Shown here one piece after another: positions 9,981-21,900 of a DNA stretch of 64,000 nt. Position 1 is the first letter of the stretch. Every line of letters begins with the position of its first letter. The position numbers were made by a program, and so were the translations under genes. The stretch comes from Periplaneta americana. Taxonomy: Eukaryota; Arthropoda; Insecta; Blattodea; Blattidae. The notes below the pieces were generated by a model, which was not told where the DNA came from, ran no database searches, and saw only the letters and a program-made list of their open reading frames with translations. The stretch lies in assembly GCF_040183065.1 (NCBI RefSeq), contig NC_091120.1, positions 170,498,488 through 170,562,487 of the forward strand, given 5' to 3'.

Positions 9981-12900
9981 CTGTAATGTAAACAAATTAT
10001 TTATCTTTTACAGTAGAAAATACAGAATTTTTTCTAAAAAAAATATATAAATGTAAGTGTTCGTAATTGATCTTTAATTCTCATTCTTGCTGAAAAAATC
10101 TTACTGGTTCATATAGGCCTATAGGTAAAAAATTTACCTGAAATAGCAAAGAAATCTATATCCTAGCGTTGTGTACTTTAGTGACAAAAAAAACCGGACC
10201 GACCCTTGTAGCTGATTTCAGAGCCTTGTTCACTCCAGAGCACGATAGACTGGTAACTAAGACTTTCGTGGTTCGAATCCTGCCTGGGAAGGAAAATTTT
10301 TTTTGTTCCTTATTCAAATTTATTCCCAATACTTTTCGATTGCTGGTAAAATTCATGTTCTGGGAATAATAAGTCAACTAAGTAGTAAAATATTGCTGTT
10401 TGTATGTTGTCAATGCGTGTGGCACATATCAAGGTTTTCAACTGTCCCTATAATCAAAACTTCAAAGAATGAGATCAGGTGATCGGGGAGAACATACTAC
10501 TGGACATCCTCGACCAATTCATCGGTTATTAAATGTCTGGATTAGGTATTGTACGATGAGTCGAAAATGGGCTGGTGGCCCATTGTGCATGAACCATTCT
10601 CGTTAGTACAGTAGAGAAGTAAATACACTCAACAGAAAAATGTCAGTTAGCTCAGAGAGGAAAAAAGCCTACACTGTTAGGTTCTATACATAAGATGTCT
10701 TGAAAGATAGTGTATTAAATTTAGGGCCCATGTTTACTACACTCTGTTTACTTACGTTGAGGAATACTAATCACTTTCAAAACATAAGAATCTTTGGTAT
10801 TTTTAAACAACTGACGATAAAGTCCACAATAAAAAAATGACTCATATCTCATCAGGTATTTTTTTCTGGAAATATGTTCACGGGAACTTTTTTTTATCAT
10901 GTCTTAAGCAATACAATCTACTGTGAAAATATATCATACTTTTTAAACACAAGGTACAGTAGTGGAGTGAAGATCACAGTGATTTTGTGGACGGAGCACT
11001 CCGAGCTATATGGGTTCCAGTTTATAATGTTGACTGTGAACGTTTTTTTTTTTTTTTTCACAGTTCTCGTGTGTGCTAACAAATAGAAGAACAAACCTTA
11101 CAATGACAAACTTAGAACTGTTGTCTGCGTACAACTTTGAATGTTAAATAATGGTAAATTTCCTAGAATTATTGTCAACGTAAAACTTTGAATATATAAT
11201 TATAATAATCAATTTTAACCTAAGCAATATAATAATTAATATCACTCAATAAAATAATTGTATTCCAATGGATACCATCCCATTGTGGAATCCTGGGAAA
11301 CGAGAATGTGGATGCTTTAGCAAAGAAGGGCAGCACTGCTACTTACAGACCTGTTACTAAATCTACGTATTACTCTGTGAAGAGATTTATTAAATCTACA
11401 TACTTAGACTTCAACAAATAAAATTTGATAACTCAATCCCAAGGGAAAAAATGGAACTCTCTGCATCAAAATCCACAGTTAATTCCTGATTCACCACGAA
11501 AATCTTCTGTAGCTGCATTTAGATTGGCAACAGGCCATGATTGTTTGGCCAAACACCTGCATAGAATTGGAATATATCAGTCCCCTAACTGCCCATTGTG
11601 CAACTAAAACCAAGAAATGGATTCGGAACACCTCAAAATCTGTGCTTCAGTGGCTGGTCTTGATAATATCTTTGGAAAATATTGGAGTGAAGAGGTCAAA
11701 TGACTTTATTGTCAAACGCCTGGCATTAGAAAATAACAACATAATAATTTAATAAAAAAAAACAGGGTGAAAATTCCAGGTTTACTCAAGAAATTTTCGT
11801 TTCCACTCAAGAATTTTTATCCTTTTCAACCAAGAATTTTAGCCCCTTTTATTCAAGAATTTTGACTGTCTCTAGCTATGATATACCTGATAAAAACTGT
11901 TAATGCTAACCAAAATTTGAATGCATTCACATTCAAGAAATATATCTTCCTATTTTTAAGATGAAATATTTATAATTTAATAAAAAATATAACTTTGCAT
12001 AATAATTAAATTAATTAAATAATAAGTTTTTAAATAAATATATTTTAGATACATTTGTAGACAGAATTCGGACTTGAAATTTTGGGAATATACTCTCAAC
12101 ATAAACTAAATTATGAACCTATTTTTGAAAAATCGGTTTTATGACACTTCTCCCTCCCATCTCTTAATGTTCTCGGGAATGTCACTCGAGCTACTAGTCA
12201 CTCAGAAATAATTGACTGCGGACGCGAAGAAAATACCTCACTGTGTAAGTTAAATGAAATGGAGTCGTGTGAAAGTTCCAAGACACAAAATACTAGCAAA
12301 ATGGAGACATATGGAATAGTTCGTCTGTAAAGGTTACAAATATTTTCTGAGTTTGAAATAGTGGGAAAATGTTTTCCAATCTAGCATAATAGAGAAAGCA
12401 AATGTAACAGTTTTCTGCAGCTGTCCGTCAACTTCGTTTATTCGCTCTTTCCTAAAAATCTCATTACTGCATTTATTAAAATAATAGTTAAGCTTAAAAG
12501 CTAAGGTTGTCCCCCTTTTACACAAGCAAGATGGTAGATAAAGTACTGTAGTTAGCATCACACTCCGATCGCTTTTTCCTTCGGGAAAGATCCTGTACCC
12601 CATAATGAGGAGAATGAGTGGATCCAGGGCCGTTCTGAAGTTTAGTAACGGGAAAATTTTCGCTACCCCCGGGATTTAATCAAGGACTTGCCAGTCTGAA
12701 GCCAGTTACTCTACGAACTGAGCTATTCGACCATCGGAGTCAAATTTATAGGAGAACAAAATAATTTAATGAGCTGTCCATATGTTTGCGTGCCACTTGG
12801 TGACATACTATTTTTTCTTACCTTTCCTTGTGCGCTTGACGAAGAGATTGTTCAGATTCAGAAAAGGCATCTCATAGGCGAGACAAAGAACTGTAGACAA

Positions 12901-15900: not shown

Positions 15901-18900
15901 GCTGAGGAGTCATATAGCCTTTGCGCGCACCATTCCTTCTGAGAGAGGAGGATGTATTAAGAGATATTTAACGAATATATTATTTCCGACCCCATAGACA
16001 CCATTAGGATGATACAGTTCTCCAACTGTCACAGATCTACAGACCAACCTTCGGAGAAATGACTGATTATACATATAGGCGTTCGAAACGTGGTTCTAAG
16101 GCTATAATGACATTGCGATGGCATGATATTTGTACTAAGGTTTACATTTGCTATTCTGATAAGTTAAGGCTAAAATCCACAATTTTTTAACTCGAAAGTT
16201 GACATTTTTACGGAATATGCAAATCATTGTCATAATCACACATATAAATTTAAATATTTTCTCATAAACACTAAAAAAAATTAAACGTTTTTTGTTTTCT
16301 GCTTTTTGTGTGTTTTTTTAATTTCCTTAGTGAAAGTCCTGTTTCTAAAAAAAAATATCTTTTTAAACGTCTAAATTTTTCTTAAAGTAACACTGCATGT
16401 TGCGTAATGGAGCATTAGTAATGCACTACTCTAATTTATTCATGTGCAAAAAAAAATTCTTCAATGTTGAAACATTAATATAAAAATAATACTACTTTAC
16501 GTATAATTCTCTAGCAATGAAACAATGATGAATATAACCAATCAAATGCTGCATTTAACAACAGAGATAAATAAATAAGTATGCCACGTCTTATCTCACT
16601 AGCTTCAATCACTGAGAATTAAAATGAATAGACCTACTTATCGTTGAAAACGTAGAAAATTTATTTTTTGAAATACCATTAAATTTAAACTTACTAATGG
16701 AAAAAAATTCGTTCCGGCACCGGGAATCGAACCCAAGACCCTCACCTTGAAACGCGCTGAATTCTCTTAACATCTGAGTTACACCGAGATATGATCCATA
16801 TTGCCGCCCGAATTCCCCTCCTTTGTATCGTCAATGGAGGAAAGTTTGGCCGGCACTGTGGATCGGGTCTCGGCATAGCTCAGATGGTAAGAGCAGTCAA
16901 CGTGGCAAGTTAGGGTCCTGGGTTCGATTTCCGGTGTTGGAACGAATTTTTCTCCATTAATAAGTATTTACGTGATGACTACTTGAAGTCATTGATGACA
17001 CAATATTCAATAGAGAACGGAGAGGTCTTTTAATAAGAATATATAAAATTTTAAGTTTTGGTTACACGTAACTCGTGCATTAACACATCGTCTACCAAAT
17101 TATATAAAAATACACATTAAGATATTGAGATAAAATATTCACGAAAATACTTCCAATGAAACAGTACATTTTTAGCGCTAAAATAAAAAAAATAATAAAA
17201 TGTGTCAAAATTCAACTATTTTGAGTGGCGCATCGTTTTAATATATTTAGCTTGAAAAGTATTTAAGGATTTTTACCTTTGTCATTAAATTATTTATTTA
17301 CTTATTTACTTGTTTGTTTTAGGAATTAGAATTCATTAATTTTTATTATTAATTAAGGTGTAACAATTTAAGTATGAAGTTAATACAAGACTTGAACTTC
17401 TTTGTAAGCAAGAGATATTGGGTCTACTTACCACAGAGTACTGCGTGAGGTAGGCAGGCGCCCTCGTACTTCCAATGTTGACCAACAGAACGATGTAGTG
17501 GCATAGATACGCGCTGTAAGTAAGGCGGCTCAGGGGCGTAAACAGCTTCCACGACAGAAGCGAATCTACGAAACCTGTACAAACAAGATTGCATTCATTG
17601 TAATAATGACTATAGTTACTACAGAAGCTGTCGTTGTATATATATGTACATGAATACTACTTGTCAAATGGGTTTATCACAAGTAACTAAGTAACACCAT
17701 ATGGAAAGGACATTTTTCTTATTCTTTTCGATTCAATATTGTGAATTTAATTAATCTACGCAATATAGTGCCACAAGAACCAAGTGTAAATGTGCCGACA
17801 TTTGCGTGGCTATCAGGTTTCTTAAAATGGCGGCTGATATAATTTACAGTGTACAGAAGTAGATTTCAACACTTACTTGATGAGAGAGATCTCAAATTAG
17901 GAGAGGGTCTAATATTACGGTCCCTTACCCTACTGTACTATATACTGTAGTTTTTTTATATTGTGTAGTATGATCCTAAGCTTTTCTGAATAGCTCACAC
18001 TTCTTAATAGCAGACATTTTAACGTTTCCCATAGTTATAGAGAACTTTTATTGTAAGAGAATAGACTCGTCATATTTGGCTGGATTGTACTCCCACTCAG
18101 CACACTTACCACCGTAGCCCTTGATGCAAGCGAAGGCGATCCATCCGATACCAATAGCCCATACGGACCGATGTAGACCGGCGTACAGGCTGGATTCAAC
18201 GGCATTGTAAGAATGTCCATCGTCGTAGAATATAGCGGCGCTCAACACAACCGTCACACAAGAGCCCACGGCAACTATCCAGCCTAGAGTCACCCAAACC
18301 TATGGGAAAAGAAAAGAAACCATTCTTCTCATCATCAACATTAACAACAGTTACAGCTACTACCATCACCATCACTACAATTTATTTCAAACTATCTTTG
18401 TTTGTTTTTTTTTATTAATGGAGAAAAATTTGCTCCACCGGCGAGAATCGAACCCGGAACCTCAAGTTCTACGCACTGGGTGCTCTAACCCACTGAGCTG
18501 CGCCTAAGTCCAACCCACTACATCGTATCGAATCTTTCTCTTTTGGTTCTTTTTCCATTACATAGATTCTTGATCTTACTTACACTTTCTTGCGTATAGC
18601 CAGCCGAAAGACTACTGTTCTCCAATTAGGAGATTAACCGTGAAACGAATGTGTTTACTATTGCGTCATCTATTGGAACGAAGTAGATAAATAATATTAC
18701 CGTTATAACGTCAGTTTAAAAAACATGCGCTCCCCTGCATATGTTATTTGCTGTATGGAGGGATTAAAATATCAGGAGATTAACCGTGATCTAATTTTGT
18801 AACTAGGGTAGTATAAGTATGTGTGTATCAATGTTATCGCTTGTGCTTTGAGAGCTAGCCAATGGATATGCGTGTACCCACATGTGTGACCTTATGATAT

Positions 18901-21900
18901 CTTATGACATCAACATTCATTCATAGCATTACTCCGCTGCGTCTCATTCCCCTGAGACTTTCTCCTGGTGGAGTACAGTAGAGCGTCGGTTTTCCACGCG
19001 AATAATCCGGGTTCGAATTCCGGTGAATCCAAGGGGAATTTGTGGTGGACAAAAATGGTGCATGATGGGAGGATTTCGCGGTGTACTCCTGTTTCCTTTA
19101 CAGTAATTTTACAATCGTTTAATTAATAATAGGCCTATAAGTAAACACTTTCTGTGGTGCACCAAGAGCAATACTTCGGCGGAAATTCTGGAGGATGAAG
19201 CTTGAGTGTATGACGCAAAGTTATGTACCAACCATTGAAAAAAAATTGACAGGGAATTTAATGAAATCTCAATGATTGCGTCTGGGTGCCGCTGTAGGTG
19301 TTGTCTTCGGTGCACATTCAACATAGAATTTTGTCTTCATCCACCTTTATATTTAAAAAAGGTATCATTAATATGCATCGGCTGGGAAATTATAATGATT
19401 ATTATGATGATAATATGTTCCAAGTTTTATTATCTGTTATTCTGTTTGAGTTACATACCAAGTATAGAAAATAATAAAACGGACATCAAAATCTCAAAAA
19501 TATCTTATTCGAATAATTTCAAGGGAAAAATTGTTCCGGGCCGGGTATCGATCCCGGGACCTCTGGTTGAACGTACCAGCGCTCTTTCCAACTGAGCTAC
19601 TCGGGAACTCCACCCGACACTCCCGGGTAGCTCAGTTGGAAAGAGCGCTGGTACGTTCAACCAGAGGTCCCGGGATCGATACCCGGCCCCGGAACAATTT
19701 TTCCCTTAAAATTATTCAAATCTGCTTTGCAGGGAACCTTACCTGAAAGACTAGATTTGCATAATATCTTATTCATTAAATTTTTGTAGATACAGTCTAT
19801 TCGTCGCCCATCATCAAAATCACAATATCACTGTCATTCTTATCACCATCAATTCATCCTATTTCTTCCTTTAAGCCTTTCGACTAATGTGCGCTTTTTA
19901 CTAGTATTTTTCTATAAACCTTTTAAAGTGAGGATTGTCCAATGTTTTGAATGGAATATTGCAACTTATCATCATTAGACTCAAATCCTGGCAAAAGTCA
20001 TATTTCATATTTGAGGCGGAATTGGAACTTGAATCCTTATTTTCTTCTAACATACGAGCCACATTTTTCATTTGTTCCTGTGTATCACATTGATGTTCTA
20101 TCGATTGTTTTGTTATCTTTTTTAATGCACACATACATGACCGACATTTAATTGTTTCACTAACATCACTACTAAAAATGTTAACATCATATTTTTGTAT
20201 TAAAGAATACACCCTATGTTTTTAACATCTGTCTCCGGCATTATGATCACTTCACTGAACACAAATGAACAATATGTTACGTATCTCAGTGTTCTCTGTT
20301 CACGTACGGACGAGGACTGACTGAAAACAGAGTGGCAGTTGTTTTCGGTGTTCGCGTGGTGCTCTCTGCGGACGGTACCGTGTTGTAGCTACCTACTTGG
20401 GAAGCGTGCACACCTCATGCCATACTGGGTGTTCATTTCAAAGTGTGTCATGACGTCATTGTTATGAGTCAGCTATTTGAAGCGAGTTTCAGCTTTTATG
20501 TCAGAGAAGTTGCCTATATTCAAGGCGTTCAATCTGAACTTGAGAACGTGTATGGTATAACTTGAACGTCGTAGCAACAGATGGCGGTCTGTACGGTCTG
20601 TGAGCTACCATAACCTCTTTCGAACTGTGTTTTGCGCGGGCAAGTCGTACGCAGGGTATTTGTTATCATCGGTTGCGTACGGCAACATTCCACAACACAA
20701 ATCAAATGCTCCGTGTCCATGTTGACCTCGAAGTTAATGTCAGTGAATACGTAAGTAATCGTCTTGACTCTCTCCCCATATCCCGACAGTAAGAAAAAAA
20801 ACTCACCTCAGTAGACCACGTGTTTCTAAACAGTTCACATTCCTGCCACTACCGGCGTTACCGCACGTATCGGTAAGTACTCTTCGGAATGAACGCCGTA
20901 CTTGATAGGCAACTTCTCTGCCACATAGGTAATTCGCCTTTGCGGAAGTGTAGGAAGATTGAATTCTCTAGGCTCATCGGCTAGCCACATGACGGCATAC
21001 AGCGAGCCATGACACACTTTGAACTGAACACCCAGTGGTCTATGCGTACAGTACTTGTAAATCGTAAACATGACTTTTATTTGACTTTCTTTCCGCTGTC
21101 TAATCACAACCTTATTTCTTTGCTGTGGTCGTACCAAAGAAGCAGTCCTATTCCGAGCGTATGTTGGGGTTTCGTCTAAGTCATTAAATTTGCAAAGCTG
21201 TGTGGTTATGGCTGCAGCATGTATCTGCATCTTGTTCCCAATTTTCAAAGGCCTGAGTCCGGTCTAGATGACCTAATTCTCTATTTACTTTGATAGCACA
21301 GAAACAAAAACAAACGTTTCTATAAAGGCTTCCACTCTCTCGTGGGCACCACCACACCACTCGTTCGATGTCACGTGGTGCCCAGTCACCGACTTTTCCT
21401 ACAGACTAAGAACGCCGATGGCTGTGCGGGCCCCGCAATTTAACGGGATCGCTGCTAAATTAAGTTGTAGACGTTTCACCGACACTGTTAGCCAACAAAC
21501 AAAACTAGCAAGGCTTGTTCCATTAACCACATATTCATTTTATATTTTTTAACACTCGTGTTGCGAAATCTCGGGTGGGCCATCGCCTGAAGAGGCTGCT
21601 TGTTTTGCAATTAGAGCCGCTTGCAGGCAAACACTAGTGCCACTTGTCTCCCAGACGTGTCAGACGCAGAGCGACTTAAGTTCAGAGATATTGCTCAGGG
21701 ACCAAGTGATGTAGTCTAAGAAACAGCAACTATCTTCTTAGCTACTTTTTTACTACCTCTGTTCCCTATTCTGTCTTTCCCTGCCTCTTTCTTCCATCTT
21801 TTATTCCTCCATTCCCTTTTTCCTTTCCTACTTTTTATTCTTTGCCCCGTCTCTTTCCTATTTTCTCTCTTTCGTTTCGTTTCATTTGTTTCTTTCATCA

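What the first reader, a model, noticed from the sequence alone, without database searches (positions are those of the whole stretch)
16698..19717. Head-to-head tRNA-like modules with their own terminators
Two loci (16698-16968 and 19511-19717) hold a pair of tRNA-like units in divergent orientation. Each unit has an A box, B box and a T-run just past the would-be 3' end, with a shared signature of the type GGAACnAATTTTTnTCC. At 19.5 kb the arms are 97 nt and almost exact complements around a 14-bp spacer. Single modules with the same ending lie at 10.2, 12.6, 13.0 and 18.4 kb, all within one gene. Known dimeric SINEs such as the mosquito Twin family are tandem, not inverted, as I recall. The units lack a SINE body and tail, so a DNA-level or palindromic spreading mode is possible.
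Basis: partly seen in the sequence, partly recalled or inferred. Interest (0 to 1): 0.75.

Follow-up and report, generated by a model that had tools for sequence, protein, structure and literature searches.

The report
tRNA-headed elements inserted Penelope-style
The paired tRNA-like units are copies of abundant mobile elements that look as if they were inserted by the enzymes of Penelope-like retrotransposons, which seem to start copying the RNA from both ends of the cut site and so leave a head-to-head pair.

Summary
The inverted pairs are real and are not random tRNA pseudogenes. The 19.5-kb copy is one insertion (19511-19762) with a perfect 12-bp target duplication. It belongs to a 290-bp unit (tRNA region plus body) with 35,968 T-arm matches in a 3.23-Gb genome.

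In a position-ordered sample, 45 of 63 insertions are head-to-head. Of these, 44 have one end at the tail tip (A) and the other about 47 nt upstream (B); none is A/A or B/B. Target duplications are mostly 10-15 bp. Inner breakpoints are random, show microhomology, and tested junctions are nearly unique in the genome: the palindromes are made afresh, not by tight fold-back. The 16.7-kb copy is an older second family, tail on one side in 22 of 22 palindromic places, though one separate copy (L112) has it on both.

This is the published insertion signature of Penelope-like elements (PLEs). GIY-YIG places, the PLE endonuclease type, abound here. Best reading: SINE-like, tRNA-carrying elements mobilised by PLE machinery. 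No hammerhead was recognised and no PLE sharing a tail was found, so the partner is inferred.

The parts
19499..19510 (.). left target-site duplication AATATCTTATTC
   Evidence: identical to 19763-19774
19511..19620 (-). left arm of the 19.5-kb insertion; outer end B
   Evidence: BLAST to the unit, unit 4>182 with overlap into the duplication
19533..19606 (-). tRNA-like sequence, left arm
   Evidence: ARAGORN; Rfam tRNA 37 bits, cut-off 29
19621..19762 (+). right arm of the 19.5-kb insertion; outer end A
   Evidence: unit 196>50 with overlap into the duplication
19621..19695 (+). tRNA-like sequence, right arm
   Evidence: ARAGORN; Rfam tRNA 46.5 bits
19718..19762 (+). one-sided tail, unit 1-45
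   Evidence: unit 1-50 matches 19718-19767 at 90%
19763..19774 (.). right target-site duplication AATATCTTATTC
16689..16825 (-). left arm of the 16.7-kb insertion (family 2); outer end B
   Evidence: 78% to the right arm over 137 nt
16832..16965 (+). right arm of the 16.7-kb insertion (family 2)
16869..16943 (+). tRNA-like sequence, right arm
   Evidence: ARAGORN; Rfam 25.6 bits, below the cut-off of 29
16966..17045 (+). one-sided tail of family 2; outer end A near 17042-17045
   Evidence: 90% over 105 nt in L117, 84% over 101 in L112, 83% over 88 in L115; relatives match to query 366 on one strand only
18412..18499 (-). single related tRNA-like module, signature with 1 mismatch
   Evidence: 75% over 89 nt to family 2

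Best explanation
These are non-autonomous, tRNA-carrying (SINE-like) retroelements that use the machinery of Penelope-like elements (PLEs). A multimeric or circular RNA of the 290-nt unit is bound by a PLE protein. The target is cut with a 10-15-bp stagger and both DNA ends prime reverse transcription: one at the outer edge of the tail (site A), the other about 47 nt upstream (site B). The two cDNAs run toward each other, stop at scattered places and are joined with the help of microhomology, which leaves a head-to-head pair with the tail on one side. Shown from sequence: architecture, the A/B asymmetry, target duplications, random and nearly unique junctions, allele sharing of the arms, presence of PLEs in the genome. 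Inferred: PLE as the enzyme, priming from both strands, the form of the RNA.
For: Family 1: 44 of 45 inverted insertions in the first sample and 17 of 21 in a second set have one A and one B end, none A/A or B/B; 47 of 63 have a duplication score of at least 7.5 against 1.3% of shuffled flanks, 42 of those 47 being 10-15 bp long. Family 2: 22 of 22 palindromic places have the tail on one side only. Inner ends of the two arms are unrelated: 9 of 45 within 30 nt, 9.5 expected; microhomology of 2 nt or more in 22 of 29 junctions without filler against 16% by chance. Junction 34-mers: window copy 1 place, L066 and L034 1 exact and 1 with 2 mismatches each. Arms share alleles, 93.2% of 117 cells against 67.7%. 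Published PLE traits: both strands cut and extended, two adjacent internal start sites, tail between them (PMC11167929, parts 1-2 of 4); inverted pLTRs, 31-bp tail on one of them, 8-10-bp duplications, trans-mobilisation (PMC3846280, passages and Discussion). In this genome 150 of 150 scored GIY-YIG places pass the cut-off (7,669 first-look candidates); the 11 neighbouring pairs within 6 kb among these 150 are all head-to-head; one ORF has RVT_1 and GIY-YIG and repeated flanks like pLTRs.
Against: No PLE with either tail was found: ten 3' stretches and two ORF starts show no similarity to the family-1 unit, nor to the family-2 tail at E 0.01, and the tail with non-element flanks gave only 68 places that look like element junctions. 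No hammerhead recognised. One family-2 copy, L112, has the tail on both sides, against a strict rule. The in-vitro study saw no difference of start site between strands. 18 of 63 insertions are not head-to-head. 16 of 45 junctions show filler or trimmed ends instead of microhomology. Whole-arm identity barely exceeds that between insertions (0.961 against 0.954). L032 and L035 probably descend from one palindrome.
Confidence: 0.78

Rival explanations
1. tRNA SINEs moved by an unidentified LINE, with unusually frequent twin priming giving the inversions.
For: tRNA-like head and target duplications fit SINEs; twin priming makes inversions in L1 (recalled); no PLE partner with the tail was found.
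Against: Both outer ends are fixed RNA positions, 47 nt apart, in 61 of 66 inverted copies examined, whereas twin priming fixes one (recalled). No poly(A) or microsatellite 3' end. No LINE with the tail was found either, but none was sought by protein.
Confidence: 0.13
2. Fold-back: one cDNA or RNA snaps back and copies itself, as proposed for PLE palindromes.
For: Arms share alleles; proposed for rotifer PLEs (PMC3846280, Discussion).
Against: Inner ends of the arms are unrelated, 9 of 45 within 30 nt against 9.5 expected; in L048 one arm is 57 nt and the other 1,467 nt, so neither can be a copy of the other.
Confidence: 0.04
3. A retrozyme: small circular RNA processed by a hammerhead, moved by PLEs, which happens to carry a tRNA.
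For: Tandem units; successive units within an arm agree at 116 of 129 polymorphic cells against 61% by chance; PLEs are candidate partners of animal retrozymes (PMC7761336, passages). Compatible with the best explanation except for the ribozyme.
Against: No hammerhead family among 30 Rfam matches at E up to 10 on the unit; one CTGANGA motif on the minus strand without a stem II. A tandem genomic source would give the same agreement of units.
Confidence: 0.03
4. A DNA-level palindrome or MITE-like element that spreads as a palindrome.
For: L032 and L035 share a junction and variants with different duplications; family-2 palindromes stand in a 343-bp tandem array on C16.
Against: Junctions nearly unique; ends asymmetric, duplications of variable length.
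Confidence: 0.02

Closest known systems
Penelope-like elements with GIY-YIG endonuclease (Poseidon of Anolis, Pen2a of Adineta vaga)
   Same: Head-to-head arrangement, tail on one side, tandem units, target duplications of about 8-15 bp, two adjacent start sites.
   Different: No ORF, no recognised hammerhead, a tRNA-like region instead; unit of 290 bp; tail about 47 nt, not 30-40.
Metazoan retrozymes
   Same: Non-coding, tandem units of a few hundred bp, PLE suspected as supplier of enzymes (PMC7761336, PMC7229834, passages).
   Different: Retrozymes are defined by a type I hammerhead; none recognised here. Inverted pairs with a one-sided tail are not mentioned in the passages seen (the word 'inverted' does not occur in PMC7229834).
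SMalpha SINE-like family of Schistosoma
   Same: SINE-like, about 335-bp repeats (PMC8490949, passages); Pol III promoter recalled.
   Different: Carries a hammerhead; PLE-type insertion structure not seen in the passages.
tRNA SINEs of the German cockroach, Sbg1-Sbg9
   Same: tRNA promoter region, non-coding, target duplications (PMC9191728, abstract and passages).
   Different: End in poly(A) or short tandem repeats; the one dimer is a fusion of two SINEs; no palindromic pairs in the passages seen. Mosquito Twin (recalled) is tandem.

Membership tests
Penelope-like element (as non-autonomous user) | head-to-head inverted insertion with tail on one side only | tested here: met
   44 of 45 and 17 of 21; family 2 22 of 22; one exception, L112
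Penelope-like element (as non-autonomous user) | variable target duplication around 8-15 bp | tested here: met
   42 of the 47 well-scored duplications are 10-15 bp
Penelope-like element (as non-autonomous user) | tandem or partial-tandem units | tested here: met
   44 of 110 arms exceed one unit
Penelope-like element (as non-autonomous user) | AT-rich target | tested here: inconclusive
   30-bp flanks 71% A+T, background 64%; no motif test
Penelope-like element (as non-autonomous user) | hammerhead ribozyme in the repeat | tested here: not met
   none at E up to 10; one motif without stem II
Penelope-like element (as non-autonomous user) | autonomous partner sharing the tail | tested here: inconclusive
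   not found in 12 PLE stretches and one pattern search; most PLE families of the genome were not read
Penelope-like element (autonomous) | ORF with RT and GIY-YIG | tested here: not met
   the 290-bp unit has no long ORF
tRNA SINE | tRNA-derived Pol III promoter region | tested here: met
   tRNA called in both 19.5-kb arms and in 6 of 7 loci scanned, L073's being of another type; sequence only, transcription not tested
tRNA SINE | 3' end shared with a LINE or simple tail | tested here: inconclusive
   ends in the tail, not poly(A) or microsatellite; no LINE search by protein was made
Retrozyme | hammerhead and circular RNA | tested here: not met
   hammerhead not recognised; circular RNA not testable here
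Dimeric SINE of the Twin type | two tRNA heads in tandem | tested here: not met
   pairs are inverted; tandem units are whole 290-bp repeats
MITE or foldback DNA transposon | symmetric terminal inverted repeats and fixed-length duplication | tested here: not met
   ends asymmetric, duplications variable

The most novel reading that the evidence does not exclude
A class of SINEs mobilised by Penelope-like elements instead of LINEs, in which a tRNA stands in the place of the hammerhead, and whose insertions are typically made by two-ended target-primed reverse transcription with start site A on one DNA strand and start site B on the other.
Probability: 0.6. Interest if true: 0.82.

Novelty: new variant of a known kind. 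Interest (0 to 1): 0.72.

Why it matters
SINEs are textbook parasites of LINEs. A tRNA-carrying element with tens of thousands of unit copies and a PLE insertion signature would add a second supplier of enzymes. How PLEs integrate is open: a rotifer study proposed self-priming (PMC3846280), an in-vitro study showed extension on both strands (PMC11167929). These copies are a large natural record. They argue for two separate cDNAs joined by microhomology, against tight fold-back, and suggest a rule not stated in the passages read (nearly always one A and one B end) that purified protein can test.

Tried and rejected
Rejected: random tRNA pseudogenes (thousands of matches, controls 0). Assembly artefact of the 19.5-kb palindrome as the general cause: it has its own target duplication and independent relatives with theirs; no reads were seen. 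Tight fold-back. Spread as a palindrome (the exception is). Hammerhead.

Led nowhere: Rfam on the window gave, above a cut-off, only the two 19.5-kb tRNAs; the sub-threshold miRNA models fit many hairpins. Search for the partner by PLE 3' stretches, ORF starts and a flank-exclusion pattern. Target duplication of the 16.7-kb copy: best score 6, the 90th percentile of 200 random pairs. The junction of L032 gave 1 place with up to 3 mismatches; L035 differs from it by an indel and so is not counted there. Nine literature searches listed no paper whose title or shown abstract describes a tRNA SINE moved by PLEs or inverted tRNA SINEs in a cockroach; the lists are capped and the library holds open-licence papers only.

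Limits of the counts: the 63 insertions lie in the first 47.6 Mb of C1 and were chosen by an exact B-to-tail pattern, so A/A is not selected against but B/B partly is; the second set does not need the tail but takes 20 places from the list plus the window, which favours palindromes like the window's. Of 70 loci L029-L098, 7 were dropped as overlapping duplicates. L083 and L084 proved to be one duplicated locus and were counted twice. From the listing I did not fetch the long array at C1:13.807-13.814 Mb or the places after 47.51 Mb. One search used 66 of the 106 rows (the first 65 and one more); none of the other 40 is full-length. Three of its 22 places stand in one tandem array. L118 is cut by the fetched stretch, so its left end is unknown.
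Full report
What is there. The window lies in a 3.23-Gb genome of 91 contigs. Contig numbering and the lengths seen suggest 17 long ones, which with the size fits the American cockroach; this is my inference and was not tested. The 19.5-kb palindrome is a single insertion: target duplication AATATCTTATTC (19499-19510 and 19763-19774), a minus-strand arm 19511-19620, a plus-strand arm from 19621, and a 45-nt tail 19718-19762 on the right side only. Both arms hold a tRNA-like sequence followed by GGAACAATTTTTCCC. The 16.7-kb pair is an older, more diverged member of a second family, with arms of 137 nt at 78% and its own longer tail on the right, to about 17045.

The unit. A tandem copy elsewhere (L048) gives the full unit: 290 bp made of a 45-47-nt tail, a body, a TATA-like stretch at 160, a leader, the tRNA region and TTTTTCCCTTGAAATTATTC, then the next tail. 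I number it from the first base of the tail; by my hand-numbering the tRNA lies at about 196-267. The T-arm pattern has 35,968 matches with up to 2 mismatches and the tail junction 11,076; reversed controls give 0. The family-2 ending has 2,319, control 0. These are unit copies, not insertions.

How the copies are built. I dissected 63 insertions from a position-ordered sample (limits under Tried and rejected). 45 are head-to-head. 44 of the 45 have one outer end at unit 38-56 (end A, the tip of the tail) and the other at unit 280-14 (end B, the base of the tail); the other one, L081, lacks a recognisable B end. None has two A or two B ends. 13 single-orientation copies end at A, 4 at B (two of these are one duplicated locus), and one, L078, is irregular. 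47 of 63 duplications score at least 7.5 against 1.3% of shuffled flanks; 42 of the 47 are 10-15 bp long. In a second set, found with the palindrome and not with the tail (L009-L028 and the window copy), 17 of 21 are clear A/B, four are partial, and none is A/A or B/B. For family 2, 23 places match the pair plus tail full-length; 22 have the opposite-strand match, and in all 22 the tail is on one side only. Against this, of ten family-2 copies read directly, L112 carries the tail on both sides. So the asymmetry is a strong rule, not an absolute one, at least in the old family.

What the junctions say. The inner ends of the two arms are unrelated: 9 of 45 lie within 30 nt of each other in the unit, 9.5 expected. 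Microhomology of at least 2 nt is seen in 22 of 29 junctions without filler against 16% by chance; 16 of 45 show filler or trimmed ends. BLAST end-trimming blurs single bases here. So the arms are not a tight fold-back. They nevertheless share alleles: 93.2% of 117 cells at 9 polymorphic sites against 67.7% shuffled, 0 of 2000 shuffles reaching it; D-arm types agree in 10 of 15 pairs against 3.7 expected. A coarser whole-arm identity test was weak: 0.961 against 0.954, own arm above the mean of others in 24 of 37, best of all in 4. Shared alleles could mean one RNA, sister RNAs of one locus, or one dominant source at the time. Arms longer than one unit are common (44 of 110), and successive units agree at 116 of 129 polymorphic cells against 61% by chance (65 of 72 without L048 and L078), so the template was a multimer or a circle.

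Are palindromes inherited? The 34-mer across the window copy's junction occurs once in the genome with up to 2 mismatches. Those of L066 and L034 occur once exactly and once more with 2 mismatches. That of L032 occurs once with up to 3 mismatches, yet L035 shares its breakpoints and several variants, differs by an indel there, and has a different duplication. Copying of a finished palindrome can thus happen but is not the rule in the four junctions tested.

Why Penelope. In what I read of Frangieh et al. 2024 (PMC11167929, parts 1-2 of 4), a PLE protein cuts and extends both strands, starts reverse transcription at two adjacent internal sites, and the optional 30-40-bp tail of genomic copies is the segment between them. 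In the 2013 rotifer paper (PMC3846280, passages and Discussion), PLE copies have direct and inverted pLTRs, a 31-bp tail on one of the inverted pLTRs, duplications of 8-10 bp in the examples, and can mobilise unrelated sequence in trans. The elements here show these traits but have no ORF and no recognised hammerhead. The genome offers candidates: 7,669 first-look GIY-YIG places, 150 of 150 scored over the cut-off. Among those 150, the 11 neighbouring pairs within 6 kb are all head-to-head. The one ORF read in part has RVT_1 (48.6 bits) and GIY-YIG (26.8 bits); its upstream flank repeats its downstream flank at 99.5% over 200 bp, with a 22-nt inverted piece, as pLTRs do.

What is missing. I found no PLE with either tail in ten 3' stretches and two ORF starts, and the tail base with non-element flanks gave 68 places whose flanks look like element junctions. 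The enzyme is therefore inferred from the footprint. The one-A-one-B asymmetry goes beyond the in-vitro paper, which saw no strand difference in start site.

A side result. Inner ends are not evenly spread: 12 of 108 fall at unit 251-254 (1.5 expected; 0 of 20,000 simulations had such a 4-nt window), or 11 of 107 without the duplicated locus. In the tRNA fold this is the T-loop around A58 (unit 252 by my numbering), where methylated tRNAs block reverse transcriptases (recalled). Smaller heaps at 84-88, 173 and 229-233 have no such explanation, so this is a lead only. Ends do not pile up at the tRNA start (4 of 107 at 191-200) and many arms run into the upstream body, so the template is not a simple Pol III transcript ending in the T-run.

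Verdict. The recurrent inverted pairing is best explained by two-ended, Penelope-type retrotransposition of tRNA-carrying elements, not by DNA-level palindrome spread. I rate it a new variant of a known kind: PLEs are suspected suppliers for animal retrozymes (PMC7761336, passages), but I saw no description of tRNA-headed users without a hammerhead in my searches.

Noticed in passing
G000 C1:13807590-13814052: Long same-strand array of the unit at about 291-bp steps, satellite-like.
   Followed up: no
G000 C16:18547981-18549161: Family-2 palindromes in tandem at 343-bp steps.
   Followed up: no
L032 and L035 (C1, about 0.6 Mb apart): Two insertions with the same inverted junction and shared variants but different duplications; probably one palindrome copied as a unit.
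   Followed up: partly
L112 (C1:78159915-78160415): Family-2 copy with the tail on both sides, a possible A/A insertion.
   Followed up: partly
unit 251-254, also 84-88, 173, 229-233: Heaps of inner cDNA ends; the largest lies at the T-loop A58 of the tRNA fold.
   Followed up: partly
L035, L044, L075, L095: Duplications made of ATT, TAA or AAAT repeats: insertions into simple AT repeats.
   Followed up: no
L099, L109, L121 (C11:107298261-107301793): PLE with RT and GIY-YIG, pLTR-like repeats over 1 kb from the ORF and a short inverted piece.
   Followed up: partly
window 10190-10310 (+) and 12600-12735 (-): Other tRNA-like modules with endings different from both families, seen by eye.
   Followed up: no
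window 11260-11700 (+): By eye, looks like a decayed RNase H-type fragment of a retrotransposon; no family search was made.
   Followed up: no
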